A DNA stretch of 64,000 nt, taken from contig JAKPDW010000091.1 in NCBI GenBank assembly GCA_029552245.1, positions 1 through 64,000 on the forward strand. Reading direction: 5' to 3'. The translations under genes were made by a program, and so were the position numbers. The notes under the pieces are model-generated. The model had not been told where the DNA came from. It searched no databases and worked only from the letters and a program-made list of their open reading frames with translations. This stretch comes from Deltaproteobacteria bacterium. Lineage in GTDB: Bacteria > Desulfobacterota > Desulfomonilia > UBA1062. Of this stretch, positions 6,125 to 39,302 are shown in pieces (within the stretch, counting starts at the first letter, position 1; the number at the start of each line of letters is the position of its first letter).

Positions 6125-6127
6125 GCC

Positions 6128-8077: not shown

Positions 8078-8161
8078 CTCATCCCTCCTTGCCCCCGCCA
8101 TGCCGGCGCGGGGCCGTAAACGACCGAAGAAACCCCATCCCTTCACCGCCTCACTCCGCCG

Positions 8162-9322
8162 TCACTCAGCGGAGGGCACCAGTTCCACCTTCAAGGGGGT
8201 GGATGATCCCCGCTGCGCCTGGACCACCGCTTCCCACTCGTAGTACCCCGGCATGCTGAGCCGCACCTCGTGGGAGCCCTCGGACACCTTCACGCGGGCC
8301 GGCGTCTTCCCCCCGAACCTGCCGTCCACGTAAACCTGTGCGCCTTCCGGGACGCTCTCGACCCGGAGGTCGGCCGTCTCCACGGGCGCCTTGCTGACGG
8401 TGGCCCGATACAGGAGGATCCCTCCCAGGACGAGGCAGGCGACGGCGACCACAGCCGCGGCCGCAATGGTCCGCCTGTGCCGGGGACGGGGCGCGGCGCC
8501 GGGCGCGCTCGTCCGGCCCGCGAGGAACCCCCCGAGCTCGCGTGCCAGCGCCGAGCCCGTCTGGAAGCGTTCTGCAGGGTCCTTGGCCAGGCACTTCATC
8601 ACGATGCCCGAGAATGCGCCTCGGGTCTCGGGGTTCATGGCGTCCAGGGCCTCGGGTTCGCTGGACGTTATCGCGTGGAAGACCGAGGCCAGGTCGGCCC
8701 CCTTGAACGGCCTCGTACCCGAGGCGAGCTCGTAGAGGATCACCCCCAGCGAGAAGATGTCCGACCTGCCGTCCACCTTCTTGCCCATGACCTGCTCCGG
8801 CGACATGTAGTTGGGGGTCCCGAGGATCTCTCCCGCCTGGGTCTGGGAACCGGCCTCAGGGTCCTCGATGTGGGCGATGCCGAAATCGGTGAGCTTCACC
8901 GTGCCGTCCGGGCTCACGATGATGTTCTGCGGCTTGACGTCCCTGTGCACGATGCCCCTGCCGTGGGCGTAGTCCAGGCATCGGGCGATCTGGGCCCCGA
9001 TTCCCGCGATGTCTTCGAGGCGGAGCGTCCTCTTCGCCGCGTACACGTTGAGGGGTTCGCCCTCGAGCAGTTCCATGGCGATGTAGACGGTCCCGTGATC
9101 CTCCCCCACGTCGTGGACGGTCACCACGTTCGGGTGCGACATGCGGCCGATGGCCCTCGCCTCCCTGAGGAAGCGCCTGACGAAGTCCTCGCTTTCGACC
9201 CTGTCCGGCCTGAGCACCTTCAGCGCTATGTCCCGCCCGATCTGCGGGTCCCGGGCCAGGTACACCATGCCCATGGAGCCCCTGCCGATCTCCCTTATGA
9301 TCTCGTACCTCCCGTAGTTCAA
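8162..9322 (-). CDS. Serine/threonine protein kinase with C-terminal PEGA domain (PpkA-like role)
   Basis: Hanks-type kinase of 386 residues. Glycine loop at 13-20, ATP-binding Lys35, catalytic Asp128 in HRDVKPQN, metal-binding Asp146 in DFG, and an activation segment rich in Thr/Ser ending in YMSPEQ. A single membrane helix follows at about 285-310, then an exported PEGA domain (LRVESVPEGAQVYVDGRFGGKTP). The start is TTG, supported by AAGGAG seven bases upstream and by homology starting at once. It lacks the von Willebrand domain of Pseudomonas PpkA. With the PP2C phosphatase two genes upstream and the nearby Fha it makes a T6SS threonine-phosphorylation pathway (inference from context). Confidence 0.92.
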   Translation of the reverse strand: MNYGRYEIIREIGRGSMGMVYLARDPQIGRDIALKVLRPDRVESEDFVRRFLREARAIGRMSHPNVVTVHDVGEDHGTVYIAMELLEGEPLNVYAAKRTLRLEDIAGIGAQIARCLDYAHGRGIVHRDVKPQNIIVSPDGTVKLTDFGIAHIEDPEAGSQTQAGEILGTPNYMSPEQVMGKKVDGRSDIFSLGVILYELASGTRPFKGADLASVFHAITSSEPEALDAMNPETRGAFSGIVMKCLAKDPAERFQTGSALARELGGFLAGRTSAPGAAPRPRHRRTIAAAAVVAVACLVLGGILLYRATVSKAPVETADLRVESVPEGAQVYVDGRFGGKTPARVKVSEGSHEVRLSMPGYYEWEAVVQAQRGSSTPLKVELVPSAE

Positions 9323-9323
9323 C

Positions 9324-10256
9324 TCACCGCTCCTTCACGAACTCGATCACGGTGTCCATGGGGATGACGAGCCCCATCCTCCTCTCGGGCTTCACCCTCC
9401 CCTGCACGACCCCCACGAGCGCTCCCGCGGCGTCGAAGACTGGGCTCCCGCTGCTGCCCGGTGAAACCGGCATGCGCACCTGGACGAACACCCTCCCGTT
9501 GACGAGCCTCGGGGGGCCGCTCACCGTCCCCGCATTGATGGTCAACCCGTTCAAGCCGGGACAGCCCACCGAGTAGACCTGCTCTCCCTCGAGGACCGCG
9601 CCGCGCCTTCCGCCGAGTTCGACGGCCGGCCCCGGCTTCCCGGGGCAGTCTATGAGCGCGAGGTCCCTCTCGTAATCCACCTTGACGAGAACCCCCCTGG
9701 CTCTCCCGCCGCTTGCGGTGGTGATCGTGATCTCTTCGGGGTTCCTGAGCAGGTGCGCAGTGCACAGGACGAGGCCGCCGTCGTCGACCACGAACCCGCT
9801 CAGCTGGATCGGCCCGCCTCTGACCTTCGCGAGGATGCAGACCGTGGACGCCGAGCGTCGCCTCACCTCTTCCGGGATCGTATTGGCCTGGTACTCTCTT
9901 GTCCCTCCGACCGTCTCTTCGTAGGCGTCGAGGAACGACCAGAGATCCTGGGCCCACGGTCCCCCCTCCGGCGCCGCGACCTCGGTGGCGAGCGGGGAGT
10001 GGTGCACCAGGACGATCCGCCGGGCGGTCCCCTTCCTCGTTGCGACCAGTTCCACGGACTGTCCCCGCTCGGTGCGCACGACCTCGTGGCCTGACCGGGC
10101 GAGCCAATCGGTTATCGCCTTTTCCGCCTCGAGCCGCGGGACCTGCACGACCCTCGTGAGGGCCAGGCCGTGCGCCTCAGGAGGGGGGCACGTCACCGGG
10201 GCGAGGGCGAGGAGGGCGACGCACAGCACCACGGGTATCCTCGGGCCCGGCCTCAC
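9324..10256 (-). CDS. Exported trypsin-like serine protease
   Basis: 310 residues. A signal-like hydrophobic segment lies at residues 7-23 and ends in Cys23 (a possible but atypical lipobox). An N-terminal domain of about 100 residues not recognised here follows, then a chymotrypsin-fold protease domain. The triad is visible: His168 in LCTAHLL, Asp198 in YERDLALIDC, Ser269 in SPGSSGSPVFD. There is no PDZ domain, unlike DegP. The GTG start overlaps the phosphatase stop as GTGA, and its own stop lies two bases before the kinase start codon, so the three genes are translationally coupled. A protease inside a kinase-phosphatase operon suggests cleavage of a periplasmic signalling partner, but the substrate is unknown. 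Confidence 0.85.
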   Translation of the reverse strand: MRPGPRIPVVLCVALLALAPVTCPPPEAHGLALTRVVQVPRLEAEKAITDWLARSGHEVVRTERGQSVELVATRKGTARRIVLVHHSPLATEVAAPEGGPWAQDLWSFLDAYEETVGGTREYQANTIPEEVRRRSASTVCILAKVRGGPIQLSGFVVDDGGLVLCTAHLLRNPEEITITTASGGRARGVLVKVDYERDLALIDCPGKPGPAVELGGRRGAVLEGEQVYSVGCPGLNGLTINAGTVSGPPRLVNGRVFVQVRMPVSPGSSGSPVFDAAGALVGVVQGRVKPERRMGLVIPMDTVIEFVKER

Positions 10257-10975
10257 GGCAACACCACCGCCAGGACCACGGTAACGTTGTCTTTGCCGCC
10301 CGCCCTGTTCGCACGGTCCACGAGATCCCGCGCCATGTCGTCGAGACGACGAGGCGGACTCAGGCAGGCCGCTATCTCCACGTCCTCGATCATATCGGTC
10401 AGCCCGTCGGAGCACAACAGGAAGATGTCGCCAGGCCTCGCTTTCCCCTTCAGGATGTCGACCTCGAGATCGCGCTTGATCCCCACCGCCCTGAGGATCA
10501 CGTGGCGCATGGGATGCACCCTGGCTTGCTCCGCCGTTATCGCCTTGCTGTCCACCTGTGACTGGACGAGCGAGTGGTCCACGGTGAGCTGACGGAGCTC
10601 CCCATCCCTGAACCTGTACGTCCGGCTGTCTCCCACGTGGCCGATGACCACCGTGTCCCCGCGAACGGCGAGGATCTCGGCGGTACAGCCCATGCCCGAG
10701 CATTCGGGGTGACTCCCCGCATGGTCGAGGATCCGGCCGTTGGCGAGGAAGAAGGCGTTCTTCACCAGGTCTTCCGCGACGCCGAGGGGGTCGGCCCGGC
10801 CGAACACCTCGAGTGCGGCATCCATGAAGAAGGCGCTCGCGACCTCCCCGGCGGCCGCCCCCCCCATGCCGTCCGCCACCGTGCACATGCCGAGGTCCTC
10901 GCGGACGAGGAAGGCGTCCTCGTTGGACGAACGCCTCATCCCCACGTGCGTAAGGCCTCGAGCCTCGATCCTCAC
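10253..10975 (-). CDS. PP2C-family serine/threonine phosphatase (PppA-like, T6SS)
   Basis: 240-residue metal-dependent phosphatase. PP2C motifs in order: RSSNEDAFLV, VADGMGGAAAGEVAS with metal-binding Asp, VVIGHVGDSRTYRFRDGEL, DHSLV, LCSDGLTD and GGKDNVTVVLAVV. It should reverse threonine phosphorylation by the kinase encoded downstream, as PppA does for PpkA in known T6SS loci (family knowledge). The start is GTG, with GAGG upstream and homology beginning immediately after (THVGMRRSSNED). It is divergent from fha, with about 100 bases between the two start codons. Confidence 0.92.
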   Translation of the reverse strand: MRIEARGLTHVGMRRSSNEDAFLVREDLGMCTVADGMGGAAAGEVASAFFMDAALEVFGRADPLGVAEDLVKNAFFLANGRILDHAGSHPECSGMGCTAEILAVRGDTVVIGHVGDSRTYRFRDGELRQLTVDHSLVQSQVDSKAITAEQARVHPMRHVILRAVGIKRDLEVDILKGKARPGDIFLLCSDGLTDMIEDVEIAACLSPPRRLDDMARDLVDRANRAGGKDNVTVVLAVVLP

Positions 10976-11053: not shown

Positions 11054-11079
11054 CCTTCGGTATGAGGGAGATCCCGGTC

Positions 11080-11988
11080 ATGAAGGTGCGGCTCGTCCAC
11101 ATCCAGGGCCCGCTTGCAGGCCAGATCCAGGAGTTTACCGAGCCATCCATCAGCATCGGGAGACACCCTTCCTGCCAGGTGACGTTCCCGGCCGATCTCA
11201 AGACCGTCTCCCGGACGCACGCCCTCATCGTGCGCGAGGGAAACCGCTGCAAGCTCATCGACAAGAGCACCAACGGGACGTTCGTCAACGGCAGGAGGGT
11301 CCAAGGCGAGGTCTTCCTCAAGGACGGCGACGTGATCATGTTCACCGACGGCGGGCCCAAGGTGAGCTTCCTCGCGGAACTCGTGGACGCCGCGCCCCCC
11401 CGCCCACCGACGCCGCCCGAGAGCACGGACGCGGCTTTTGGACGCCAGGAGGCCGCGGCCCAAGCCCAAGGCACGCCCGCGCGCGGCGCGCAGGCCCCCG
11501 CCCCCCGGCAGGGGCCGCCACCCTCCGTGCCCCAGGCGCCTGCAGGTGAGGCGCCCCGGGTCGGCAAGGTCCAGGTCCCCCTCATCGTCCAGTACGGGCC
11601 GTCGGTCCGCACGTTCAGGGAGGTGCCCGTCACGATCGGCTCCGCGCCGGATGCGGACCTCGTCATGGCCCACGCGGGCATGGCCCCGCGCCATGTCATG
11701 ATCTTCTCGAGCGGGGGCGCCTACTGGGTCAAGGACCTCACGGGCAGGGGCATGGTGACCATCAACGGCAGGCCGGTCGTCACCGAGGCGCAGATGAACT
11801 CCATGGACCTCGTGTCCCTCGGCCCCGGCCTCCCCACCTTCAAGTACCTCGGCGAGGGGAGGCTCGCGGAGATCGAGCAGGAGCCCGCCCACAAACCGGA
11901 GACGAGAGAGGCGCACACGCAGCCGCAAGACGCGCCCAAGCCCGTCAAGAAACCCCAGAAGTCCATCTTCGACATATTCAAGCGCTGA
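11080..11988 (+). CDS. FHA-domain protein (T6SS Fha-like phosphothreonine reader)
   Basis: 302 residues. A canonical forkhead-associated domain occupies residues 1-100, with the phosphothreonine-binding residues in place: Gly27-Arg28, Ser44, His47 and Asn65 (GRH, SRTHA, STNGTF). A Pro/Ala-rich linker (about 110-165) leads to a second, degenerate FHA-like domain (IGSAPDADLV, PRHVMI, TINGRPV), and a basic tail ends IFDIFKR. The ATG at 11080 has GGGAG nine bases before it and fits the promoter; an in-frame ATG at 11062 does not. It is convergent with the VgrG-side operon and divergent from the phosphatase. Unlike typical TagH/Fha it has no helical C-terminal domain; a candidate for that part is encoded separately at 36026-36769. 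Confidence 0.88.
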   Translation: MKVRLVHIQGPLAGQIQEFTEPSISIGRHPSCQVTFPADLKTVSRTHALIVREGNRCKLIDKSTNGTFVNGRRVQGEVFLKDGDVIMFTDGGPKVSFLAELVDAAPPRPPTPPESTDAAFGRQEAAAQAQGTPARGAQAPAPRQGPPPSVPQAPAGEAPRVGKVQVPLIVQYGPSVRTFREVPVTIGSAPDADLVMAHAGMAPRHVMIFSSGGAYWVKDLTGRGMVTINGRPVVTEAQMNSMDLVSLGPGLPTFKYLGEGRLAEIEQEPAHKPETREAHTQPQDAPKPVKKPQKSIFDIFKR

Positions 11989-14584: not shown

Positions 14585-15742
14585 TCACGGCCACTCGGCC
14601 ATGAAAGGCATTCCTGCGAGCTCCTGGGGCAGGTACGGCCTGAGCGCAGGCGCGCTTCCCCGCCACACGATGCAGACCCTGTCCCGGTCGGGCTCGATCA
14701 CCACGGTGTGCATGACCACGTCCGTCCGGTTCAACCTGCCGTTCCTCGCGTCCGCAAACAGGCGAGGGGCCTTCTTCGGGAGCCGTATGCGCATCGTTTC
14801 CCGCCCCGGGTGCATGTTGCCGAGCAGGATCTCCTCCCCGCCCACGAGGTAGGGTACGCTCAGCCCCGGTGAGGCGCCCGAGGCGAGCAGGAATGCACCG
14901 TGCGCATCGACGGTCCTGTCCTTGACGACCCATGCGGGGACGAGGCCCCTGTCCACCTCCGCGAACACCGCCGCCGCCTCGTCGTGATCAGGCACGATCC
15001 CGGCGCACGCGATGCGGGGGAACCACCCGTAGTCGTACCAGTCCATCGCCTGGGGCAGAGGCATGAGCGGCCACCTGAGGTGATCCTGCACGCAGAGCCT
15101 CTCGGGCGTCAGGGGGTCCTGCGGGTCCTCGAGGTTCGGCAGCCTGAGCGCCTCGACGGCCCTCCCGTCCTTCTCGATGAGGTAACCCGTGCCGCAGGGG
15201 TTGCGCGGGTAGAGAAACGGGCTCGCCATGTCGAGATCGCACTCCCCCGGGTCGACGGCGCCGTGCAGGGCCAGGAACGGGTTTCCGCGCGTCCGCTCCG
15301 CCGCATGGTCCCTGCCTCCGTAGGCGTGCGTGTACGAGAGGGGGACCTTGTCCACGGGCTCAGGCTCGGAAAACACGATCTTCCCGGCAGGGTCCAGCGT
15401 GCAGCTCCTGTCACCCACCACGAGGACCCGCTTCTCCCTGCCGGCGACGCTCACCCCGGCGATGAACCTCCTCCTCCCATGGCCGTAGGCGTGCCCCTTG
15501 ATCACCACGTCCGTGGAGAGCTTGTAGGGGTAGATGTCGATGTCGTGGACGAGCAGGCCCTTGACGGACCCGTCGGCAACGGGTCTCGTGTTGAGCGGCT
15601 CCTGCTCGGGCATCGGCTCGAGGGACCCGTCCTTCCCGACGGCATAGGCGACCTTGAGCACCACCGACAAGATGAACCCTCCCTGGGGGTCCCTTCCCGA
15701 CAGCTGCATCGCGCACGGCGCGGGGGATGTGAGGACGGGCAC
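14585..15742 (-). CDS. DUF2169 family T6SS accessory protein (VgrG-proximal copy)
   Basis: 385-residue protein of the DUF2169 family, which occurs next to vgrG and PAAR-like genes and is thought to act as a loading adaptor (family knowledge). The family hallmark LSYTHAYGGRDHAAERTRGNPF is at about residues 136-157, followed by a Gly/Pro-rich turn (NPCGTGYLIEKDG) and LPNLEDPQDPLTP. It has no signal peptide or membrane segment. The start is GTG with GGGAGG close upstream. A second member of the family lies two genes away with the PAAR-like gene between them. The two are too divergent to be a recent duplication. Confidence 0.85.
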   Translation of the reverse strand: MPVLTSPAPCAMQLSGRDPQGGFILSVVLKVAYAVGKDGSLEPMPEQEPLNTRPVADGSVKGLLVHDIDIYPYKLSTDVVIKGHAYGHGRRRFIAGVSVAGREKRVLVVGDRSCTLDPAGKIVFSEPEPVDKVPLSYTHAYGGRDHAAERTRGNPFLALHGAVDPGECDLDMASPFLYPRNPCGTGYLIEKDGRAVEALRLPNLEDPQDPLTPERLCVQDHLRWPLMPLPQAMDWYDYGWFPRIACAGIVPDHDEAAAVFAEVDRGLVPAWVVKDRTVDAHGAFLLASGASPGLSVPYLVGGEEILLGNMHPGRETMRIRLPKKAPRLFADARNGRLNRTDVVMHTVVIEPDRDRVCIVWRGSAPALRPYLPQELAGMPFMAEWP

Positions 15743-15751
15743 GGTCCCTCC

Positions 15752-16648
15752 CTAGTACGCCCCGGTCTGCCCGGCACCGCCAGTCGAGCCGCCGTGCTCG
15801 TCGACGCCGGGGTTGCTCAGGTAGTTCGTGACGGCCTCGGCCTGCCTTCCCAAGAGCGTCGGCAGACCGAACGTGGAAGCGTCCATGCCCATGGGCCCGC
15901 CCATGAAGAAACCCGTGACGGCGTTGGCCAGGTTGCCCGATCTCGCTGGCAACGCGCTGAAGTAGGCCGCCGCGGATACACGCTGCGACTGCACCAGCTG
16001 CCGGGCCGCCTCGTTTATCATGTTCCCCGGCACACCCCCCCTGCTCCTGAGCAGGGCCTTCGCCGCCTGCTTGGAGAGGACCTGGGGTGCGAACCTGCCG
16101 AGGAGGTAGCTCGCGTAAGGCTCTATCAACTCTCCCGCCTTGTTCCCAAGCCAGTTGAGGATGGACTGCACGATGAAGTCCGCCGCCATGGCTTGAAAGC
16201 CGTTGAGGATGTCCGCGAGGCTCATGTCCACGTACACCGTGGTGAGCGCGAGTGCGAGCCCGGTGGGCGTGGGCACGGGGGTCCCGCAGTCGAGGTTCGG
16301 GTTCGTGTTCCCGAGGAGGGCCGCGGCGATGCGCTCCCCGTTCGACTGGATGTTCGCGGGCCCGAAGTACGACTTCGACGAGCTGAAGGCGATGTCGAGG
16401 GGCAGGGTCTGCGAGGGGGGGCCGACGTGCGGGATGCCCGGCCCCACGTCCGTGGGCGCCTGCATGGTGAACCCCAACCCCTGCTGGGTGTGCGTGGTCG
16501 CGTAGCGCGACGTGAGCCCGGTCCCGACCATGACCGCCATGGTCTTGTACGGTGCGGGCGTAGGAGCGGGGGACGGCGACCCCGGCGGCCAGGGTATGTG
16601 GTAATCCACCCCCATGACCGGGTGCCAGTGCTTCAGGACCGCGAACAC
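15752..16648 (-). CDS. PAAR-like candidate / T6SS cargo protein of unknown function
   Basis: 298 residues, flanked by two DUF2169 genes and upstream of vgrG, the usual place for a PAAR or PAAR-like (DUF4150) tip protein. The N-terminus is rich in Pro, His and Gly (HWHPVMGVDYHIPWPPGSPSP), then GIPHVGPPSQTLPLDIAF and TPVPTPTGLAL, consistent with a compact beta tip. From about residue 140 it is helical and alanine-rich (FQAMAADFIVQSILNWLG), ending in a Gly-rich tail. I cannot match it firmly to a PAAR family. The C-terminal part could be an effector or a chaperone-binding region. Start is GTG; the ribosome binding site is unclear (GGGGGG six bases upstream). Confidence 0.65.
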   Translation of the reverse strand: MFAVLKHWHPVMGVDYHIPWPPGSPSPAPTPAPYKTMAVMVGTGLTSRYATTHTQQGLGFTMQAPTDVGPGIPHVGPPSQTLPLDIAFSSSKSYFGPANIQSNGERIAAALLGNTNPNLDCGTPVPTPTGLALALTTVYVDMSLADILNGFQAMAADFIVQSILNWLGNKAGELIEPYASYLLGRFAPQVLSKQAAKALLRSRGGVPGNMINEAARQLVQSQRVSAAAYFSALPARSGNLANAVTGFFMGGPMGMDASTFGLPTLLGRQAEAVTNYLSNPGVDEHGGSTGGAGQTGAY

Positions 16649-16753
16649 GGCGCGCCCCCCCGGCCCGCGTGAGCCTTCGAACGGTATCCTCGGCCTCTTT
16701 CTCCCACAGGTCCTCCCCTTCCGTGCGCCCTCACGAGCACCGCAGGCCCCTCT

Positions 16754-17728
16754 TCACGAGACCACGCCCGGCTCGTAGACGAGCTCGCACGATCTCTTCT
16801 CGTGGGGGGTGAAGACGTACCTGAAGGGATACCGGTACGTGAGGAACACCCTCTCGAGATCGACCTCGACCCCCACCTGTGCGACGGCCGGCTCCCTCAT
16901 CGCCTCGTGCGCGCCGATGGCGACCCTCACGCCCAGGCCGGAAGGCGGGATCGTGAACTCCAGGGACCTCCCGGGGAGCATGCCCCTGATGCGCACGCGG
17001 TCTCCCGGCAGCACGCGCGGGGCCACCATGGCCGGGAAGGCGGAGTTGAAGAGGGTCGGCTTGATCTCGGTGAGGGCGCCGGTCTTCTCGTCGAAGACAA
17101 GGGACTGCTCGAGCCTGGGGCCGAACGCCATGCCGCAGCATGCGACGCCCACGGGCTCCGGCCTGTCGTCCCACCTGGAGATGAGACGCCCCTTCTCCTC
17201 GATGTTCGGAAGCTCGCCGCCTTCCGCGTTCTTCTCGTCGACATAGAACCCCTTGCCCAAGGGGTTGGCGGGGTAAGGGACGTCGAGGCCGTCCCAGGTG
17301 TCCTTGCCCCCGTAGGCGTGTTCGAGGGTGAGCGGGATCTCGGAAAACGGGGCGGGCGGGGAGGCGACGAGGGACCCCTTGACCTTCCTCCACACGCGGC
17401 GTCCGAAGACCACGATGGAATACGTGAACGAGGACCCCACCTCGACGGACACCTCCATGACCCCCGTCTCCGGGCGGTGAGGCCTGGCGCTGCCGAACGC
17501 GAAGACGTCGACCCCGCCCGTGTAGAACACCTCGTCCGAGTCCATGGGCCCGTACGGGCCCTCCCACGGCTCCGCCGACACCCGCCACACCTGCTCGGGG
17601 GCCGCCTTCAGCGTGCCGTCGACGATCGAGTAGGTCACCCGGCAGACCACGGAGGCGAAGAGGCGCCTGTCATCCACCACCCCCCTGAAGAGCATCGCCG
17701 GGAAAGGGGTCGAGTTCGTAAGAAGCAT
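16754..17728 (-). CDS. DUF2169 family T6SS accessory protein (ClpV-proximal copy)
   Basis: 324 residues. Begins MLLTNSTPFPAMLFRGVVDD, as members of this family do, and carries the hallmark LTLEHAYGGKDTWDG followed by YPANPLGKGF. No signal peptide or membrane helix. It starts eight bases after the clpV stop and precedes the PAAR-like gene by about 105 bases. By analogy with the family it may help mount a tip protein or cargo on VgrG. Having two family members around one tip gene suggests either two cargo specificities or a heteromeric adaptor. Confidence 0.85.
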   Translation of the reverse strand: MLLTNSTPFPAMLFRGVVDDRRLFASVVCRVTYSIVDGTLKAAPEQVWRVSAEPWEGPYGPMDSDEVFYTGGVDVFAFGSARPHRPETGVMEVSVEVGSSFTYSIVVFGRRVWRKVKGSLVASPPAPFSEIPLTLEHAYGGKDTWDGLDVPYPANPLGKGFYVDEKNAEGGELPNIEEKGRLISRWDDRPEPVGVACCGMAFGPRLEQSLVFDEKTGALTEIKPTLFNSAFPAMVAPRVLPGDRVRIRGMLPGRSLEFTIPPSGLGVRVAIGAHEAMREPAVAQVGVEVDLERVFLTYRYPFRYVFTPHEKRSCELVYEPGVVS

Positions 17729-29927: not shown

Positions 29928-32900
29928 TCACCTCCAGGGGCACCTCGCGATGGTCACCGGCAGGGTACTCGGCTGCCCCATCACCGGCTTCGCCTGGCTG
30001 ATCACCGCCTGGTGACCGCTGAAACGGTACTGGACCTTTATGTACCGTATGCCCATGGACTTGAGGGCGTTTTCCTCCCTCGGGAAATCCTGCGGGGTGA
30101 AGGTCCTCGCGCCGCCTTTGAACTCGAGGAGGAACTTGGCGAACGCGTCCTGCCCCGTGTAGGTCTTCGTGAGGACGAGGTTGCCCACCTCGATCGAGAA
30201 GGTCACGCCGGCGCACCGCTGAGGTGACCACATGAGGGTCTTGGTCGCAGGGTAGTTCATGTTCACGAAGACCTGCTGGGAGTCCATGCACTGGACGGCA
30301 AGCCTCGTCGCGTGGGGCTGGACCCTTGCACTGTCGTTGGCCTCGGTGGGATACCCCGTCACGCTCACGGGCACGTCGGATGCGGCGCCCGCGAGCGAGG
30401 CGACGCTCAGGCCGACCCTGGCGCGGGAGAAGAAGTCGAGGAAGGAGGCCTCGAAGGGCAGCGTCCTGCCGAGCACCTCCCTCGGGTAGAAACCGCGCCT
30501 TACGTCCCTGCCCACGAAGGGTGCGGCGGGCCCCTTGATGAACTTGGTCGCCAGGCCGTCGGGAGCGAACAGGACCTGGTTGAGCTGCATGCTGTCGGCG
30601 ATGCCCTGGGCGTCTGCGAGCACGTCTTTCTCCCACACCTCCTGGAGATAGCAGGCCGCCTCCTGGCACGTGTACTGCCAGAGGAAATCGAGCGGGCCGC
30701 CGATGAGCGCCAGGGTCTCCCTGTCGATGCCGCTCGCCTGCGCGTACCTGTCGAGGGCCGCCTTGGCCGCATAGAAGGGGGAAGCCGTGTTGTCCTCGCC
30801 GAACATCACCGACGCCGACTGGTAGGCCTTGGCCCTCGAGACGGAGACGGAAGCCGAGATCTTCGCCAGGGCGGCCTCGTACTCCCTGAGCGCCTTGGCC
30901 GACTCGACGTGGGGGCCCGCCGCGTCGGTCCCGCCTTCCCCGCCCATGCTCGCCTGGAGCTTTTCCTTGAGCCTGGCGGCCGCCTCGGCGGCCTTCGACA
31001 CCGAGCCTGCGCCCGTGAGCCTCGAGGAGAGCTCCCTGTCCTCCTGGTAGCGGAACAGGCCCTGGATCCACGCCGGCCTGTCCCCGTCGCCGATCGACCT
31101 CGCCTCCTCGACCATGCGTGCCAGCAGGGCCTGGTAGGGGCCGCTCCGGGTCGCCATCTTCGAGGCGCTCTCCCTCCACCGGGCGGCGTCCTTCAGGCCC
31201 GATGCACCCTTCGGGAAGTGCACGGCGAAGGTGTGCCAGGCCTCCATGCAGTCCTTCCGGTAGGCGGCCAGGAAGGCCTCCTTGCGCGACGCGAAGGGGG
31301 CGTCGGCGCCGAGCACGGTGTCGAGGTCCGCGAGGAGCTCTCGCACGAGGGCCCTCCCCTCCTTCGTATAGGCGGGGTCGACGGACGCCTGGAACGCATC
31401 GGGTTTCTGCTCTCCCCAGAAGTCCTCGAACGTGACCTTCTTGTCGGCATTGCCGGCATTCACCCACTTCACGAGCCAGTCCAGGCTGGACGACCGCTTC
31501 ACGGCCTTCACGAGCATCGACTCCAGGACCCGGGCCTCCCTCGCGAGCTTCTCTTCGTCCTCCCACTGCACGCGCTGGAGGTAGAGCTCAGACAGGGTCG
31601 CCGCCTGATCCCGGGAGAGCCCTGTATCACCGGCCATCATGAGAAAGGACCCGGCGTTCTTGTGCACGTCTCCGCCCTGGGTCCTCTCCCGGATGAGCTT
31701 GATGCGCCCCAGGATGGAGATGATGTAGTCTCCCAGGGTCTCGTCGGTGGCGTCCAGCGACTCTATGGAGGCCGCCATCCTGGCGTCGTGGTTCCTGAGG
31801 AACCGCTCGTCGAACAGGGAACAGAAGCGCGCCTTGAGCCGCTGTTCCACCTCGATGCTCTCGTCGAGCCCGAACCTCGGTATCCACCAGCCGCTGTTCC
31901 TCTCGTGGATCGCGGACACGGCGTCTCTGTATCTGGAGAGCGTGAGCACATCCGCCGACGGCTCACCGGAAAACTCGACGGCCCTCGTGGAGGATGCGGG
32001 CACCGACCGTATCGCCGAGAGATTCTTCACGAACGAAAAGCTCAAAAGGCCCGAGAGACCGATCCCGAAGGCGAGCCATGCCATCAGGGCGAGGTTGAGG
32101 GTCGTCCTCTGCCAGGCGAGCGCCCTCCTGGTCGGCGCCGCGAGTCCCCTGTCCGCCGGCAGGACTTTGGCGAAGAAGTCGTGCAAGAACAGCCCCCTGT
32201 TCGTCCCCGGCAGCACCTCTGCCTGCGAGACGAGCCCCAGGGCCTTGAGGAAGTGCGAGTAGGGCGCCCCCTCCTGTCGCCCGCTGCTGAAATAGACCCC
32301 CCTGAGGAGGGGGGTTTCCTGGTACGGGTTCTCCTGGAATGCGCCCCTCACGTAGGCCGCAAGGCCGGTCTTCATCCTCGAGAACTCCTCGGGGAACAAC
32401 AGGAGCGCGGGATCGGCCCCCGAGATCCCCTGGTCGTGGAGCGCGATCAGCCTCAGGTACCTGAGCCTCTCCACGAGCGCCTCGAGGGCGCGGTCCACGA
32501 ACGACGCGCAGTCCTCCCCGGGGTCCTTCTTGACCATGCCGAAGGCCTGCTTGAGCGCCTCCTCGTCGAGCCGGTCGCAGAACCTCGTCATGCCCTGAAC
32601 GAGGTCGCACTTGCTCACGAGCACGTAGACGGGAAAGACGCTCCCGAGCGACCGCATGAGCTCGTCCATGCGTCTCCTGATCTGCCGCGCCTCCTCCTCG
32701 AGTTCCTCGGGGGACGCGCCGAGGATCCTGTCCGCCGCGATGGTCACCACGAGGCCGCTGAGCGGCTCCCTCCTCCGGTACCTCGCGAGGAGCCCCAGAA
32801 AGCGCTGCCATTCCTCGAGGTCCCTGCCCTCGTCCACGGGGATGGCGTACCTGCCGGCCGTGTCGAGGATGACGGCCTGCTCGAAGAACCACCAGTCGCA

Positions 32901-33370
32901 GTTCCTGGTACCCGAGACACCCTGGACCCGGTGGGCCTCGGCGAACGGCGAAGACAGGCGTGCGCTCTTGATGGCCGTGTCTTGCCCGAGCCGCTCTCGC
33001 CTATCACCATGTACCAGGGCAGCACATAGAGCGGGTTTCCGAGCTTCCTCAAGTGCGACGCCCTGAGGGCGCCGACAGCCTGCCTGAACTTCTCCTGGAG
33101 CTCGGTCCTCCTCCTTCGCTCCTCGTCCTCGAGACCCCTGACGGCCTCCTCGTCCTGGGCGACGATGCTGCTCACGAAGCGTTCCTCGCGCCTTCTCAGG
33201 ACGATCTGTCTCGCGAAGACGACCGCCGTGGCGATGCCCGCCATGACGAGGAGGATGAAGAACCCCACCCAGAGCGGCCAGGCAAGGACGAGCACGACGC
33301 CGAAGGCAAGCGTGACCGCCGCGAGGACCGCAAAGACCGCTATAACCGCCGAGATGATCTTCTTCATCAT
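29928..33370 (-). CDS. tssM: T6SS inner-membrane protein TssM (IcmF), frameshifted in this sequence
   Basis: About 1147 residues once corrected, a normal TssM length. It spans the inner membrane and joins TssL and TssJ to form the trans-envelope channel. Two N-terminal membrane helices (about 4-27 and 32-52), a cytoplasmic GTPase-like domain with P-loop GESGSGKT at about 123-130, switch motif DTAGRY, a third helix (LALMAWLAFGIGLSGLLSF) and a large periplasmic part ending in the IcmF C-terminal domain. Just after GKT the frame breaks: the sequence reads GACACGGCC where GACCACGGCC restores TAIKSARL. One C is missing near 32978-32983. The ATG at 33370 overlaps the tssL stop. The surrounding genes are intact. 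Confidence 0.93.
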
Positions 33371-34038
33371 GGCCTGGGGGTGAAGAGCGCGTCGGCGACG
33401 TTCCCGAGCACGAAGGAGTAGACGACGGCGAGCACGACGAACAGCACCACGGGGACCGCCGCGACCGCGGCGGTCAGAATCAAGGGCAACCCCCGTCCCG
33501 CCCCCTTCCGGGACGGGGCCTCGCCGGTCGGGTAGGCCTCGGGGAACAAGGCCTGGGACGAAAGCTGCGGCGTTCCGAGTGAGCTGCCGGTGAGCACCTT
33601 GAGGTTCGAGGTCTTGAGCTGGTCGAGCAGGAAACGGTCCTCCTCCCTGACGAAACGGCCCATGAAGCCCATGGCGAGGCACAGGTAGTACACCTCCCGG
33701 GCCTCTCTCTGGTGCACGCCGAGGCCGCCCAGCCTCTCGAAGAAGAGTTCCCCCGCGTTCGTCGTCTGGTAGAACCTGAGCTGGAGCGGTTCCTTCATCC
33801 ACAGCTGCCGGTGTTCCCACGAGGAGTTCATGATCGTCTCGTCGATCCAGGCGCACACCGCGAAGCAGGCGGCGTCGTAATCCTCCTGCGGGAAGGACGA
33901 CGCCTGCGCCCTGCTCTGCGTGATGAGCCCGAGGATCTTCTGCCTGACCACATCGTAGTCGAACCGCTGGCCGGACGGGTCCCTAAGGAAGTAGACCACG
34001 TAGGCCACGGTGTCCATGAACGCGTCGCTCAGGTGCAT
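33367..34038 (-). CDS. tssL: T6SS inner-membrane protein TssL (DotU family)
   Basis: 223 residues: a cytoplasmic DotU helical domain and one C-terminal membrane helix (GLPLILTAAVAAVPVVLFVVLAVVYS region). Family features: YVVYFLRDPSGQRFDYDVVRQKIL, then YDAACFAVCAWIDETIMNSSW, FYQTTNAGELFFERL and LEVYYLCLAMGFMGRF-like sequence. It recruits the baseplate through TssK. No peptidoglycan-binding OmpA domain is fused, so anchoring to the cell wall may rest on another protein. Overlaps tssM by four bases and follows tssK by four. Confidence 0.95.
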   Translation of the reverse strand: MHLSDAFMDTVAYVVYFLRDPSGQRFDYDVVRQKILGLITQSRAQASSFPQEDYDAACFAVCAWIDETIMNSSWEHRQLWMKEPLQLRFYQTTNAGELFFERLGGLGVHQREAREVYYLCLAMGFMGRFVREEDRFLLDQLKTSNLKVLTGSSLGTPQLSSQALFPEAYPTGEAPSRKGAGRGLPLILTAAVAAVPVVLFVVLAVVYSFVLGNVADALFTPRP

Positions 34039-34042
34039 GATA

Positions 34043-35422
34043 TCACCCCCTCCTCACCACCATGAGTTCCACCTTGAGGTCCTCGGGCGCCGCGTCCCAG
34101 AACAGGGCGACGTTCTTCGCCGCCGCCACGGATGCCCACTGGTCCGAATGGTGGTCGACCTGGAAGTAGAGCGCCCCGCTCTTCCTCGGGAGCTCCTGCG
34201 GCGGCCTGTCGAGGTATGTCAGGCCGGCTCCCGGCAGCGCCCTGGCGATGAGCAGGGGGAGCCCCTGGCGCGAGCCCAGCTTGGCGCCGGTGATCAGGGC
34301 GCGTACCACCTTGGCGGCGTCCGCCTCGGTCTGGACCATGAGGAAGAACCGGTTCCTGCCCTCGAAGACCTCGGGCGGGAGTTCGGAAGAGAAGTAGGTC
34401 CCGTCGTAGGCGAGCCCGAACACGTAGTCGGGCCCGGCGGTGATCGCGTCCAAGAGCGCCGCCGCCAGGACGCCCGCCCTGCCGAAACAGCCCGCGAGGT
34501 CGAGGTGGTCGTATCCGGGCAGGGCCTGCCCCCCGTCCAGCTCGCCTACGACGGAGCACCGTTCCGAGAACGTGGAGAGCTCCCCGACGAGTTCTCTCAA
34601 GACCCCGTAGACGACCCACGGGTGGGTGGGGGTCTCGAGGAGGTGGGAGAGCCTCGGGATGAAGCGGTTGAGCGAGCGCAGGGCCAGGAGGTAGACCATG
34701 TCCCTGGAACCGAACTCCGCGGTGTGGACGCCGCGGTCGCGCTTGTAGCCCTCCAACTGGAACCCCCTCGACGCGATGAGGTCGCGGATGTCCCTGATCA
34801 TCCGCACGAGCGCCTGCGATGCCTCGCACGTGACGCTCGGGGGGATGAAGTCCTCGGACACCACGACCTCTTCCCCCCTCCTCTCGAGCCTGGCCACGGG
34901 AATGGTCTCGTACTCGCCGAAGAAGTCCTTCTCCGTTTCCCACAGGATCTTCAGCACGTAGGTCATCCTCGTGACCTGCGCGGGGGGCCCGTCGAGGTGG
35001 AGATCGACGCACTCGACGGGCGCCTCGTCGGCGACGAACCGCGTGTTCAACCCGGCCGACGGCGGCTCTTTCCGCCTCTCGGTCACGTTCGGGCCCATGC
35101 GGTTGAACCTGCGCAGGCCGAGGTAGACGTTCAAGGGCCTTCCCCCGTCCTTCCAGGCGTCCTCGAACGAGCGGGGCTCGACCACCGCGTTGCCCGGGAC
35201 CACGGCGTACGTCGCGTCGGGGAAGATGAACTCCCCGGAGTCTATGTGGAACCTGCCCGTGCCCAGCGAGGCCGCCCTGATGTCCATCCTGGCGACACCC
35301 CACGCGTGCGGGGAGAGGTAGCGGTACACGGGCCAGAGGAGAGAGGAGTGGTAAAGGTCGGCGAGCTGGAAGTGCTGCGGCTGGAGGAACAGCCCCTGGT
35401 GCCACAAGAGAGGTCTTTCCAT
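34043..35422 (-). CDS. tssK: T6SS baseplate-membrane connector TssK
   Basis: 459-residue TssK trimer subunit linking baseplate to the TssL-TssM complex. The N-terminal shell domain is typical: LLWHQGLFLQPQHFQLAD (usually W.EGmfLrPQHFQ). The C-terminal part has YLDRPPQELPRKSGALYFQVD, equivalent to the conserved P-P-x-I-P segment near the receptor-like head domain. AAGGAGAAGG seven bases before the ATG is a strong ribosome binding site. It lies 67 bases after tssJ. Confidence 0.95.
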   Translation of the reverse strand: MERPLLWHQGLFLQPQHFQLADLYHSSLLWPVYRYLSPHAWGVARMDIRAASLGTGRFHIDSGEFIFPDATYAVVPGNAVVEPRSFEDAWKDGGRPLNVYLGLRRFNRMGPNVTERRKEPPSAGLNTRFVADEAPVECVDLHLDGPPAQVTRMTYVLKILWETEKDFFGEYETIPVARLERRGEEVVVSEDFIPPSVTCEASQALVRMIRDIRDLIASRGFQLEGYKRDRGVHTAEFGSRDMVYLLALRSLNRFIPRLSHLLETPTHPWVVYGVLRELVGELSTFSERCSVVGELDGGQALPGYDHLDLAGCFGRAGVLAAALLDAITAGPDYVFGLAYDGTYFSSELPPEVFEGRNRFFLMVQTEADAAKVVRALITGAKLGSRQGLPLLIARALPGAGLTYLDRPPQELPRKSGALYFQVDHHSDQWASVAAAKNVALFWDAAPEDLKVELMVVRRG

Positions 35423-35489: not shown

Positions 35490-36023
35490 TCACTTCGAAG
35501 GCGGCGGATCCTCGAGGTTCCTGGCGCCGAGCACGAGGTTCACGCTCAGCCTGCCGGGCTTCCTGACCTTCGAGAGCCACAGGAACCCCCTGCGTTCGGT
35601 CACCTCGGGTATCCGGTATATTCTCGTGATCTTGCCGCGCTCCAGCGCATAGTACCCGGCCACGATCCCCACGTACCTGGCCCCCTCGGCCCTGTCCAAC
35701 TTCACGGTCACGTCCTTGCCGGGATAGGCCACCACCTGCTTGCACACCGAGACCGTCTGCGGGTCGAACGCCTGGCACTCGAGGAGCCGGTAGAGCCCGT
35801 CCCTGCTCCCGGCGAGCTGTTCGAAGGCGTTGGGGCTGCTCAACTGGTACACGCAGAGGACCAGGGCGTGCGCCTTCTTGTCCTTGAAGTTGAGGTTCCT
35901 GTCGGCCGTGAGATGCAGCTCGAGGGCGTCCTTCTCGTAGTCCCACCTCACTTGGGCCGGGCCCGAGGCGCACGACCACGCACAAAGGGCCGCCGCGATC
36001 GCAAGGCATGCCGTTCTCTTCAT
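35490..36023 (-). CDS. tssJ: T6SS outer-membrane lipoprotein TssJ
   Basis: 177-residue lipoprotein that tethers TssM to the outer membrane. The signal peptide ends in AWSC with the lipid-carrying Cys at residue 18. The mature domain has the transthyretin-like pattern of the family: LHLTADRNLNFKDKKAHALVLCVYQLSSPNAFEQL, a DVTVKLDRAEGARYVGIVAGYY strand pair, and an R-K turn before LSVNLVLG. The ATG at 36023 was chosen because the signal peptide begins there and the stop of the preceding gene lies three bases upstream. Confidence 0.92.
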   Translation of the reverse strand: MKRTACLAIAAALCAWSCASGPAQVRWDYEKDALELHLTADRNLNFKDKKAHALVLCVYQLSSPNAFEQLAGSRDGLYRLLECQAFDPQTVSVCKQVVAYPGKDVTVKLDRAEGARYVGIVAGYYALERGKITRIYRIPEVTERRGFLWLSKVRKPGRLSVNLVLGARNLEDPPPSK

Positions 36024-36025
36024 CG

Positions 36026-36769
36026 TCACCCCCCGTGGTGCTCGAGGAATCTGAGGCAATTCTTCTCGAATTGCCTCTGGAAGTCCAGCATGAATCGGTC
36101 CGACTCGAACCACCTCCTGACCCGGGCGTACGCGTCCTCGTACGCCTCGAACGCCTGCGCCTTCTTGAGAGGCCCTATGGCGAGCCCGCCCTTGGCCGCG
36201 TCCATGGCGGCCGGGTCGAGCTCGGCCATGATGAACCCTGCGAGGGCCTTCGCCGCCTCGCGCGACGCAGCGGCTGCGGCCAGGAAGGCCTTCTTGATGG
36301 CGCCTATGTACTCCTCCACGGTGGGGGCGCCCTCGAGCCCCTGGACCGCGGCTCCCACGATCCCCCTGATGGTCTCGTTGCCGCCGGGCGCGGCCCCGAG
36401 TTCCCCGTGGATGGCGCCCACGATCTCGTTGAGCGCCTTGAAGACCGAACCAAGCGCGTCCGAGAGCCTTGCCACCAGCTCGCCGGGTTCGATCGAGTCC
36501 ACGTCGAGGTCTTTACCCAGGAGGGCCCCGATGATCTCGGACCGACTCAGCACACCGAGGCCGGCCTGGCCCTTGCCCCATGAGCGGAAACGCCCCTCGA
36601 GCGCCTCGAGCGCACCCAGCCTCTCGCCAGGGGCGAGGTGCGCGAGTCTCGAGGCGAGCAACGCCTCCATCCTGGGCCGGGCATGTGCGGGGTCTTCCGC
36701 ATAGATGGCGCGCAGCTCGTCTTCGAGCCCGGCGAGGGTGTCGTTCAGGTCTGGGCGGGGCTCCGTCAT
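36026..36769 (-). CDS. T6SS protein resembling the helical C-terminal domain of TagH/Fha
   Basis: 247 residues, acidic at the N-terminus and mainly helical. No FHA domain, signal peptide or membrane segment. The C-terminal 80 residues (FIMAELDPAAMDAA, then AFEAYEDAYARVRRWFESD, DFQRQFEKNCLRFLEHH) resemble the end of TagH/Fha proteins, where an F.P..LE element precedes a helix with Y.E.Y..I. and DFQ..F...F. This is pattern similarity by eye, not a search result. The start overlaps the ETV-motif gene stop as ATGA. Together with the FHA-only protein at 11080-11988 it may be a split Fha. Confidence 0.6.
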   Translation of the reverse strand: MTEPRPDLNDTLAGLEDELRAIYAEDPAHARPRMEALLASRLAHLAPGERLGALEALEGRFRSWGKGQAGLGVLSRSEIIGALLGKDLDVDSIEPGELVARLSDALGSVFKALNEIVGAIHGELGAAPGGNETIRGIVGAAVQGLEGAPTVEEYIGAIKKAFLAAAAASREAAKALAGFIMAELDPAAMDAAKGGLAIGPLKKAQAFEAYEDAYARVRRWFESDRFMLDFQRQFEKNCLRFLEHHGG

Positions 36770-39302
36770 GGTTTCCTGGGCTTGATGATCACGGTCTCCT
36801 CGAGGCCTTCCCCTTCGGCAGGCCTGTCCCCTTGGCCGGTGTCTCTTCCCTTTACGCTTTTCTCCCGGTCACCCGGTCCCACGGGCTGGGGTTCCCCGCT
36901 TCCACCCGGGACATCTCCGCCTGCTGCCCCACCCTTTCCGCCCGCCGCATCCGCCGGCCCACGGGGCTCGGCTTGGTGACCGGAGCGGGCTGAACGCCCG
37001 CCGATGACCACGGTCTCGTCGAGCCCGGGGGTCTCCCCTGGGCCATCCACGCTCGGCGCTCTCTGCGGCGCCCCCGCCGTCTGGGTGCCGCCCGGTTCGA
37101 GGCTGGGGCGCCCGCCTTCACGACCGGGCCCGCCCACGAAAGAGGCGGCTCCTAGGGCGTCGTCCCCTTGTCGCACAGGGGTCTTCGAGGCCTCGAACCC
37201 CCCTTCGGCGACACGCCCCACGATCACGGTCTCGTCGAGGTCGCTCTCCGTCACGGGACCTGTGCCGAGCCCGGCCGCAGCAACGGATCCATCGACCCCG
37301 TCACGCCTTGCGCCGGCCGGCTGCACCGTTCGAGGGGCTCCTGCCGCGTCCGCCGGGACGGGTCTCCCCCCCTCACGAGGTGTCCCTCCACCGCCGGCGG
37401 GAAGCCCCGCAGGCGCCCCGGCAGCGGGGGACGGCCCGGCCGCCATGGTCTCGTCAAGCCCGCTTTCCTGGATAATATCGGGTTTCGGGAGGTCGACCCG
37501 GGGAGACGACCTCACGATCACGGTCTCGGTGCTGAAGTCGTCTCCCTTCGGGGGCTCACCGAGCAGGACGCCGCCTGCGGCGCCTGCCCCCCTCCCCATC
37601 GCCTCTCCACCGGATGCGGCCGCGAGGGTGGCGTCGAGATCGGCATGCGCACCCTCAGCCGCCGCCCTCGGGCCCCCGGCCTCGGTCTCGATTCCTCCCC
37701 AGGCCGCACCCGCACCCCGACGCCTCCGGCCCACGCAGACCTGATCTCCCCGAGAATGGCCGCTATCTCCGAATCGGCGGCGTGATCGACGGTTCGCCCC
37801 CTTCCTGGAGACGGGATGTCCCCGAGGCTCGCGGCCACCCCCCTCACGAGCGAGCGGCGGAGATCGTCGACGAGGAGACCGCATTCCTCCACGAACGCGT
37901 CCCGCGGGAACTCCGGCCCGGCCGAGAGGAGAGACCATCCGAGCTTCAGCGCCCGTTCCCACAACGGCATCCAGAACGCCTCGACGCCGGCCTTCTCCCA
38001 GAAGACGTTGCCTGCGTCCAGCAGGGGGTTTTCGGCGGCCAATCTCCCATCCGAGGCCATGCGCACCAAGGCATCGTGCAGGGCAGGCCTTCCGACCTCC
38101 TTGCTCGAGATGCAGGCGTCGAACCAGAGCAGGCCCAGGAGGCTGATGTCCCGGACCTGCGATGCGGGCAGCATCGATGATGTGGGTCTCGGGTGCACCC
38201 CGAGGGAGGCGAGCCGGTAGTGCCAGAGGGTTGCGAGCCTGGGCTGCCCGGCGGGAAGGTGCAGCCAGACCTGCTCGAGCCCGGGCGGGTAGACGGATGA
38301 GGGCTTCCCTTCCAGGGGTGCCAGCGCCAGGGCGGCCACGTCCCTCATGAGCGAGACCTTCAAGAGGAGGGTCTCTGCGAACCTGCCGGGCCCGTCTTCG
38401 ACCAGGTGCAGGCCCCCCTCGAAGGACACGGCCTTCTCGACGAGCTCCTTTCGTATCCTCTGCCCCCTCTTCGCGAGGCGTTCGCAGACCTGTGAGACCG
38501 GGGCCCCGCTTGCGAGCGCGAGGAAGTCCTCTGCCACGATATTCGCATCGGGAAGCACGAACAGGCGGAAGGGGTAGAACGACACCGGGACGATCCTCCG
38601 GGTGACCTCCCCGCCGCCGTGGCAGGCGGAGCGCTCGGCACACGAGGCGCATGGGTTCCCTGCGGCGTCGAGAACGGCCATGCCCGCCACGACATCCTCG
38701 ACACCGGATACGCAGGGAGGGTCGTCCACGCGCCTGTGGGCGGCGTAGAAACGGCCTCGGCCTTCTCCGAGGCATTGCCTGCAGGCGAGGTACCGCTCGA
38801 GGCTCATCGAGTAGGACGGGAGCCGGGCCTCGTCCAGGACCCTGTCGTCCGTTACGAGCTCGAGGGCCCTCCCGCACGCAGGGCACAGGGGGCTCGCGAA
38901 GCGCCCGGTGCGGGTGCAGACGAACAGCGGCCCCATGGCGGCTCGGTCCGTGCCGCCGACCTGCCGTGAAGCGAGGGGGACGAGCTGGCCCCTGTCCCTC
39001 ATCCATTCGTAGACCTCGAGGAAGGCCTCGTCCACCTCCGGGTTGGATACGCCCGGGGTCTCGTGCGCCCACAAGGGGTGGTCGTCGGCCGTCATCACCA
39101 GGAGAACCCTCGCCACCTCGCCGCCGGCGTCGCTCACGACCCGTCCCGGGAGCGTACGGGTCCCCGACGACCGGTCCTCCAGGGCAACGAGTGCGAGGTC
39201 GGGCCGTGACCCGATGTCAACCCTCTCGCCCCAGGTCTGGATCCTCAGGGAGAACGGCGCCTCTGGGTTCTCGAGGTACGGGACAAGGGAACGCGTCTTC
39301 AT
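36766..39302 (-). CDS. First protein of the T6SS operon: zinc-type cysteines and a tail of ETV[IV] motifs, frameshifted
   Basis: About 845 residues once corrected; family not recognised. Residues 1-300 hold three cysteine clusters (CPACG, CRQC, CASCAERSACHGG) that could bind zinc. Residues about 300-520 are helical. The last 300 residues are disordered-looking (Gly, Pro, Ala, Asp) and carry five short motifs: STETVIV, LDETMAA, LDETVIV, LDETVVI and LEETVII, the last ending the protein. Four fit pThr-x-x-[I/V], the FHA preference. The frame shifts near 37690-37740 and one added base joins the two parts. Downstream translation is supported by the ATGA overlap with the next gene. The ATG has GGAG upstream and lies about 105 bases after the operon promoter. 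Confidence 0.7.

What the first reader, a model, noticed from the sequence alone, without database searches (positions are those of the whole stretch)
36766..39302. Possible multisite phosphothreonine scaffold at the head of a T6SS operon
The disordered tail of this unknown protein carries five short motifs around 37512-37536 (STETVIV), 37438-37461 (LDETMAA), 37219-37243 (LDETVIV), 37001-37026 (LDETVVI) and 36782-36808 (LEETVII, at the very C-terminus). Four have I or V three residues after the Thr, the known FHA preference pThr-x-x-[I/V]. The same island encodes a Ser/Thr kinase, a PP2C phosphatase and an FHA protein. Inference: the kinase phosphorylates several ETV sites and Fha binds them, making a tunable, multivalent switch for T6SS assembly. 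A substrate with a repeated motif array is, to my knowledge, not a described part of the threonine-phosphorylation pathway.
Basis: partly seen in the sequence, partly recalled or inferred. Interest (0 to 1): 0.82.

Follow-up and report, generated by a model that had tools for sequence, protein, structure and literature searches.

The report
Phosphothreonine-motif array on T6SS pseudokinase
At the head of a bacterial harpoon (type VI secretion) operon sits a previously unnamed dead-kinase protein with a floppy tail carrying several near-identical threonine tags, conserved in over 80 genomes, which probably act as a multi-site phosphorylation switch that a partner FHA protein reads to start building the weapon.

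Summary
The motif array is real and far from chance. It marks an unnamed protein family at the head of T6SS operons: an N-terminal core that AlphaFold places in the protein-kinase fold (Zn-ribbon insert, catalytic Asp lost) and a disordered tail with usually 3-5 copies of [DE]2-3-L-x-E-T-V-I-[L/I/M]-S-P. I collected about 88 genomes in Desulfobacterota, Nitrospirota, Planctomycetes (Brocadia) and others. In 71 complete tails the motif occurs 283 times, against about 3 expected; Ser hardly ever replaces the Thr (290:2). In one genus the pseudokinase is gone and only a helix plus three motifs remain, so the array is the selected part. All 16 near-complete array-bearing genomes encode a Ser/Thr kinase and 15 an FHA protein. 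The window's genome has exactly one full kinase and one FHA protein, both in this cluster. The gene after the array encodes a Fha/TagH C-terminal-like domain without FHA, so canonical Fha appears split here. Best reading: a multisite pThr scaffold read by the FHA protein. Phosphorylation and binding remain inferred. Correction: the window's copy is not one ORF; it is frameshifted near 37.70 kb, and TssM near 32.98 kb.

The parts
37731..39302 (-). Pseudokinase core with Zn-ribbon insert (524 aa, first frame)
   Evidence: AF2 on 67 family sequences pLDDT 86.6, pTM 0.86; VIA Z 14.0 to the IRAK3 pseudokinase, listed 50 entries all protein kinases; invariant Cys 129,140,143,174,177,218,221,227
37734..37784 (-). 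Terminal helix AIxxILxxIxxKW (window: SEIAAILGEIRSAW), kept even in mini-array proteins
   Evidence: AF2 helix 507-523; retained in L131, L142-L145
37692..37714 (-). Zone of the -1 frameshift between core and tail
   Evidence: codon-usage switch point; no frameshift in relatives; RNA fold no better than shuffles, z 0.26
36766..37714 (-). Disordered tail with the motif array, second frame
   Evidence: translations; tail of relative L021 has pLDDT about 25-39
37618..37638 (-). Degenerate copy LDATLAA
37513..37533 (-). Motif STETVIV
37438..37458 (-). Degenerate copy LDETMAA
37219..37239 (-). Motif LDETVIV
37003..37023 (-). Motif LDETVVI
36784..36804 (-). C-terminal motif LEETVII
   Evidence: last motif is a median of 14 aa from the C-terminus in the family
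36026..36769 (-). T6SS_FHA_C-like protein without FHA domain; start overlaps the array stop (ATGA)
   Evidence: PF20232 E 0.0019, over cut-off in G011; overlap read; follows the array gene in nearly all loci that reach that far
35490..36113 (-). TssJ
   Evidence: PF12790 E 1.2e-19
34043..35422 (-). TssK
   Evidence: PF05936 E 2.4e-106
33367..34038 (-). TssL/DotU
   Evidence: PF09850 E 1.1e-39
29928..33370 (-). TssM, itself frameshifted near 32978-32987
   Evidence: PF14331; tblastn of relatives' TssM in two frames
8162..9322 (-). Ser/Thr kinase with HRD and DFG, membrane segment and PEGA domain; candidate writer, the only full Pkinase hit in the genome
10253..10975 (-). PP2C phosphatase; candidate eraser
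   Evidence: PF13672; extent from ORF
11062..11988 (+). FHA protein: first FHA domain canonical (GR, SRxH, NGT), second degenerate; candidate reader, the only FHA protein found in the genome

Best explanation
The protein is a multisite phosphothreonine scaffold of a T6SS threonine-phosphorylation pathway. A Zn-ribbon pseudokinase core probably docks or senses; this is inferred from predicted fold only. A short helix links it to a disordered tail with usually 3-5 equivalent Thr sites. The cluster's membrane Ser/Thr kinase (cytosolic kinase, membrane segment, PEGA domain) phosphorylates the sites and PP2C removes the phosphate. The cluster's FHA protein, whose first FHA domain keeps the pThr-binding residues, binds the phosphorylated copies. 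With the co-translated Fha-C-like protein this rebuilds from separate parts what canonical Fha/TagH does in one chain: gathering baseplate and membrane-complex parts to start assembly. Several sites would give avidity and a threshold. Shown: the array, its conservation, Thr specificity, operon position, co-occurrence, and the core's predicted kinase fold. Inferred: phosphorylation, FHA binding, scaffolding, switch behaviour.
For: Motifs: 283 strict copies in 70 of 71 tails against 3.1 in shuffles, 290 Thr against 2 Ser in that context; 164 in 40 representatives at <=45% identity against 1.9; no strict match in 536 neighbouring proteins of 180,146 aa. Array kept when the core is lost (genus g28, 5 of 5 genomes) or reduced (L108, L114, L115, L122-L126). 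Core-positive genomes are 12 of 27 TssK-positive and 0 of 220 TssK-negative in the phylum sample (Fisher 2e-13). Full kinases in 10 of 11 array-positive (10 of family f1 plus G044) and 0 of 7 T6SS-negative f1 genomes (p 2.5e-4). In the own genome, one full kinase and one FHA protein, both here. Kinase, FHA or PP2C lie beside the array gene in several lineages. Canonical fused Fha sits at the operon head in array-less loci (L136, L137). Fold. The motif resembles mycobacterial Thr phosphosites (PMC7164672). Precedents: TssL pThr14-Fha (PMC3953482), MviN tail pThr-FhaA (PMC12599244), Fha/PpkA condensates (PMC12607579).
Against: No biochemistry was found for any member. Positions +1 and +2 are as conserved as +3 (about 2.9, 2.9 and 2.8 bits), more than FHA recognition alone is expected to need. 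The Zixibacteria member L128 has the core but no array, although its genome has kinases and FHA domains. G126 (93% complete) has kinase and array but no FHA hit. Two of the window's six copies are degenerate, and its gene and TssM are frameshifted, so this copy may be non-functional.
Confidence: 0.65

Rival explanations
1. The motif is a phosphorylation-independent short linear motif: the acidic stretch plus T-V-I-L adds as a beta-strand to, or docks into, a T6SS component such as the Fha-C-like protein or a baseplate protein, and the array gives avidity without any phosphate.
For: +1, +2 and +3 are all hydrophobic at about 2.8-2.9 bits each, typical of a buried strand; the array gene overlaps or abuts the Fha-C-like gene; mini-arrays stay beside that gene.
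Against: Strict Thr over Ser (290:2) and an invariant Thr beside an otherwise hydrophobic core are hard to explain without a phosphate; strong coupling to kinase, PP2C and FHA genes.
Confidence: 0.2
2. The sites are phosphorylated, but the phosphate breaks a contact (off-switch) or only adds charge; the FHA protein reads something else, for example the kinase itself.
For: Kinase and phosphatase co-occur; in A. citrulli Fha focus formation did not need the Fha phosphosite although it needed active PpkA (PMC12607579).
Against: Bare charge would tolerate Ser and a variable +3, which is not seen. Only one FHA protein and one clustered multi-copy ligand candidate were found in the own genome.
Confidence: 0.1
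3. The tail is low-complexity sequence and the motif a compositional accident or a recent repeat without function.
For: The window tail is Gly/Pro/Ala rich and two of its copies are degenerate.
Against: Conserved across phyla with poorly alignable linkers; about 90-fold over shuffles; kept when the core is lost.
Confidence: 0.01
4. The repeats are processing sites for the Trypsin_2 protease encoded between the kinase and PP2C genes.
For: The protease gene is conserved in the kinase cluster.
Against: The protease has a hydrophobic N-terminus suggesting export, whereas the array protein lies with cytoplasmic T6SS parts; repeat spacing and the C-terminal copy do not suggest processing. Not tested.
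Confidence: 0.03

Closest known systems
T6SS threonine-phosphorylation pathway PpkA/PppA/Fha, incl. A. tumefaciens TssL pThr14-Fha (PMC3953482)
   Same: T6SS-encoded membrane Ser/Thr kinase, PP2C and FHA protein; a pThr ligand in a T6SS protein read by FHA is demonstrated there
   Different: Known ligands are Fha itself or one site in TssL; here a dedicated protein carries usually 3-5 equivalent sites, and FHA and Fha-C domains are on separate proteins
Mycobacterial MviN(MurJ) pseudokinase-FhaA complex (Gee 2012, as described in PMC12599244 and PMC6180346)
   Same: Pseudokinase whose C-terminal tail is phosphorylated by a Ser/Thr kinase and bound by an FHA domain
   Different: MviN is a lipid-II flippase in cell-wall synthesis; no Zn-ribbon insert and no motif array is described there; the array protein has no Pfam match to it
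Fha/TagH condensate scaffold (A. citrulli, PMC12607579)
   Same: Operon position, proposed nucleation of T6SS parts, Fha-C-like domain next door
T7SSb EssB/YukC pseudokinase with FHA-bearing EssC
   Same: A secretion system combining a pseudokinase and FHA domains
   Different: EssB is a membrane protein of another system; no pThr array is known (my knowledge)

Membership tests
T6SS threonine-phosphorylation pathway | Membrane Ser/Thr kinase encoded with the T6SS | tested here: met
   Kinase 8162-9322 with HRD/DFG and membrane segment
T6SS threonine-phosphorylation pathway | PP2C phosphatase encoded with the T6SS | tested here: met
   PF13672 at 10253-10945; conserved beside the kinase
T6SS threonine-phosphorylation pathway | FHA protein with pThr-binding residues | tested here: met
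   First FHA domain of 11062-11988
T6SS threonine-phosphorylation pathway | Fha as one chain, FHA plus T6SS_FHA_C | tested here: not met
   FHA protein and FHA_C-like protein are separate genes here; fused in L136, L137
T6SS threonine-phosphorylation pathway | Kinase-dependent phosphorylation of the ligand | not testable with these tools
   Needs biochemistry or phosphoproteomics
Fha/TagH family (the array protein itself) | FHA and T6SS_FHA_C domains in the protein | tested here: not met
   No such Pfam domain in any of 10 members
Protein kinase superfamily, pseudokinase | Bilobal protein-kinase fold | tested here: met
   Predicted structure; VIA Z 14.0, 249 residues aligned at 3.8 A, listed 50 entries all kinases. 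Foldseek alone weak, best E 0.037
Protein kinase superfamily, pseudokinase | Sequence homology to kinases | tested here: inconclusive
   hhalign with the cluster kinases: main family prob 0.1; distant members prob 57 over the alpha-F segment only
Protein kinase superfamily, active kinase | HRD and DFG aspartates | tested here: not met
   Window has LEQVWLHL and WHYRLASLG in these places; family consensus LSxDxIWV and FWNF
MviN/MurJ family | MurJ flippase domain | tested here: not met
   No Pfam match
MviN/MurJ family | Tail pThr bound by FHA | not testable with these tools
   Needs binding assay

The most novel reading that the evidence does not exclude
A widespread, undescribed branch of the T6SS phosphorylation pathway in which Fha is split and its ligand is a dedicated pseudokinase carrying a pThr array. 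FHA-array multivalency would nucleate a phase-separated or clustered assembly site whose threshold is set by the number of phosphorylated copies; in one genus it is reduced to a mini-array protein of roughly 110-130 residues.
Probability: 0.45. Interest if true: 0.85.

Novelty: new variant of a known kind. Interest (0 to 1): 0.78.

Why it matters
How kinase signals trigger T6SS assembly through Fha is still an open question (PMC12607579 calls the detailed mechanism elusive). Here nature separated writer, reader, ligand array and Fha-C domain onto different genes, and even made a small ligand-only version, so each step can be assayed separately. It would also be the first dedicated multivalent FHA ligand I know of in a bacterial secretion system, and a new bacterial pseudokinase family.

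Tried and rejected
Pfam and NCBIfam with single members and with ten members: no family. PDB sequence search with the 67-member profile: nothing meaningful. First AF2 run with 10 sequences: poor core, mean pLDDT 54.5. Programmed frameshift in the window: no canonical slippery heptamer seen by eye and no RNA structure beyond shuffles; not favoured, not excluded. Internal start at ATG 37597-37599 behind GGAG: possible separate expression of the tail, unproven. Search for other multi-copy arrays in the own genome: 54 scattered single matches against 15 in the reversed control, with a tight cluster only here. A two-FHA bivalent reader: dropped because the second FHA domain is degenerate. Literature: of the papers opened or listed, none describes this protein; the library is open-licence papers only. 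The phylum survey is a sample of 247 genomes, not a census; kinase and FHA presence was tested in about 30 array-bearing genomes, not in all 77 loci.

Full report
The observation. But 36766-39302 is not one reading frame. The N-terminal part runs in the frame of ORF 37518-39302 and the tail in that of ORF 36766-39072; codon usage places a -1 shift at 37692-37714. Relatives are read without a shift, as single open frames. There is no RNA structure beyond shuffles at the site. TssM in the same operon also changes frame, near 32980, so I regard these as assembly errors or recent damage; which of the two cannot be told without reads.

The family. The core, searched in relatives and in GTDB genomes, gave 11 genomes of the neighbourhood set and 77 loci (several are the same genomes), with more in a phylum sample and a core-less genus: about 88 distinct genomes by my count, mainly Desulfobacterota, with Nitrospirota, Ca. 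Brocadia, a Deferribacteres bin and Zixibacteria. In nearly every locus that extends far enough the order is [array protein]-[Fha-C-like]-TssJ-TssK-TssL-TssM-TagF. In the window the cluster continues through TssA-H, VgrG and DUF2169 genes to the FHA, PP2C, protease and kinase genes.

The array. In 71 complete tails the pattern [EDKQAS]T[VIML][IVLM][ILMV] occurs 283 times, in 70 of 71 tails, against 3.1 expected from shuffled tails. The one tail without it, L105, is cut by an in-frame stop with its motifs behind it. The consensus is acidic at -7 to -4, L/I/V/M at -3, E (or K) at -1, T, V, I, L/I/M, S, P. The same context with Ser occurs twice against 290 with Thr. Copies are spaced by a median of 30 residues and the last is a median of 14 residues from the C-terminus. 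Restricting to 40 representatives at no more than 45% identity leaves 164 motifs against 1.9 expected. The stricter form is absent from 536 other proteins of these neighbourhoods.

The core. With 67 sequences AlphaFold gives a confident model (pLDDT 86.6, pTM 0.86). Foldseek's own E-values are weak (best 0.037, a pseudokinase), but structural realignment gives Z 14.0 to the IRAK3 pseudokinase with 249 residues at 3.8 A, and the listed 50 entries are all protein kinases. Eight invariant cysteines form a Zn-ribbon-like insert. The catalytic-loop and DFG aspartates are missing in the window protein. Sequence profiles do not link the main family to the cluster kinases; distant members L128-L130 keep kinase-like traces such as HLDL/HLNLRPEN and DLYSLGMLL. 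I therefore call it a predicted pseudokinase.

The array is the selected part. In genus g28 (5 of 5 genomes) the core is gone and a protein of roughly 110-130 residues remains: the terminal helix AIHRILVKILEKWR plus three motifs, at the same operon position. Eight other loci have lost much of the C-lobe yet keep the motifs.

Company. The window's genome (99% complete) has a single full Pkinase match and a single FHA protein, both in this cluster. The kinase keeps HRD and DFG and has a membrane segment and PEGA domain; the first FHA domain keeps GR, SRxH and NGT, the second does not. In the phylum sample all 12 core-positive genomes are TssK-positive (27 of 247). By my tally, 16 of 16 array-bearing genomes at 90% completeness or more have a full kinase and 15 of 16 an FHA domain (exception G126). 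T6SS-negative members of the family have no full kinase (0 of 7 against 10 of 11). T6SS-positive genomes without the array protein either have a canonical one-chain Fha at the operon head (G165, G168, by position also G186), an FHA protein there (G167), no FHA at all (G081, G121, G162), or FHA and kinase elsewhere with no array in the stretches read (G067, G174). G246 was not followed further. So array protein plus Fha-C-like protein stand where Fha stands in canonical clusters. The link of the Fha-C-like protein to PF20232 is itself weak (E 0.0019 in the window, over cut-off only in G011; profile comparison E 0.014).

How it most likely works. The kinase writes and PP2C erases phosphate on the tail threonines; the FHA protein reads them; together with the Fha-C-like partner this concentrates T6SS parts at an assembly site. 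Each single step has a precedent: FHA reads pThr14 of TssL in A. tumefaciens (PMC3953482), an FHA protein reads the phosphorylated tail of the MviN pseudokinase (PMC12599244, PMC6180346), Fha and PpkA form condensates that recruit T6SS parts (PMC12607579), and mycobacterial phosphosites share the acidic upstream and hydrophobic +3 pattern (PMC7164672). What is new is the dedicated repeated ligand on a pseudokinase and the split of Fha. No step of phosphorylation or binding has been shown for this family.

Limits. Most genomes are metagenome bins, so absences are weak. L128 has the core without the array. Hydrophobic +1 and +2 could reflect kinase preference or a strand-forming contact and leave a phosphorylation-independent motif as the main rival.

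Noticed in passing
window 32978-32987 (-): TssM of the window is frameshifted relative to relatives: N-terminal ~130 aa in another frame. Two frameshifts in one operon suggest assembly error or a decaying T6SS.
   Followed up: partly
L040:10699-12186 and L032:10214-11713: Proteins with an N-terminal FHA domain and a lytic transglycosylase SLT domain beside the kinase or FHA genes of T6SS relatives: an FHA-read cell-wall enzyme would be unusual.
   Followed up: partly
window 5636-10256; same genes in relatives: Trypsin_2 protease, a thioredoxin-TPR-CsgG protein and a CsgG-like protein are conserved with the kinase in nearly all relatives with that region; role in the pathway unknown.
   Followed up: no
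L036, L043, L146 next to the FHA gene: An extra TssC-like gene (~520 aa) directly follows the FHA gene in several relatives.
   Followed up: no
L105 about 1918: An in-frame stop at the first motif of the array in this relative, with the remaining motifs intact behind it.
   Followed up: yes
window 14585-17695: Two DUF2169 genes flank an unknown gene (15752-16648) between ClpV and VgrG, probably effector-loading adaptors.
   Followed up: no
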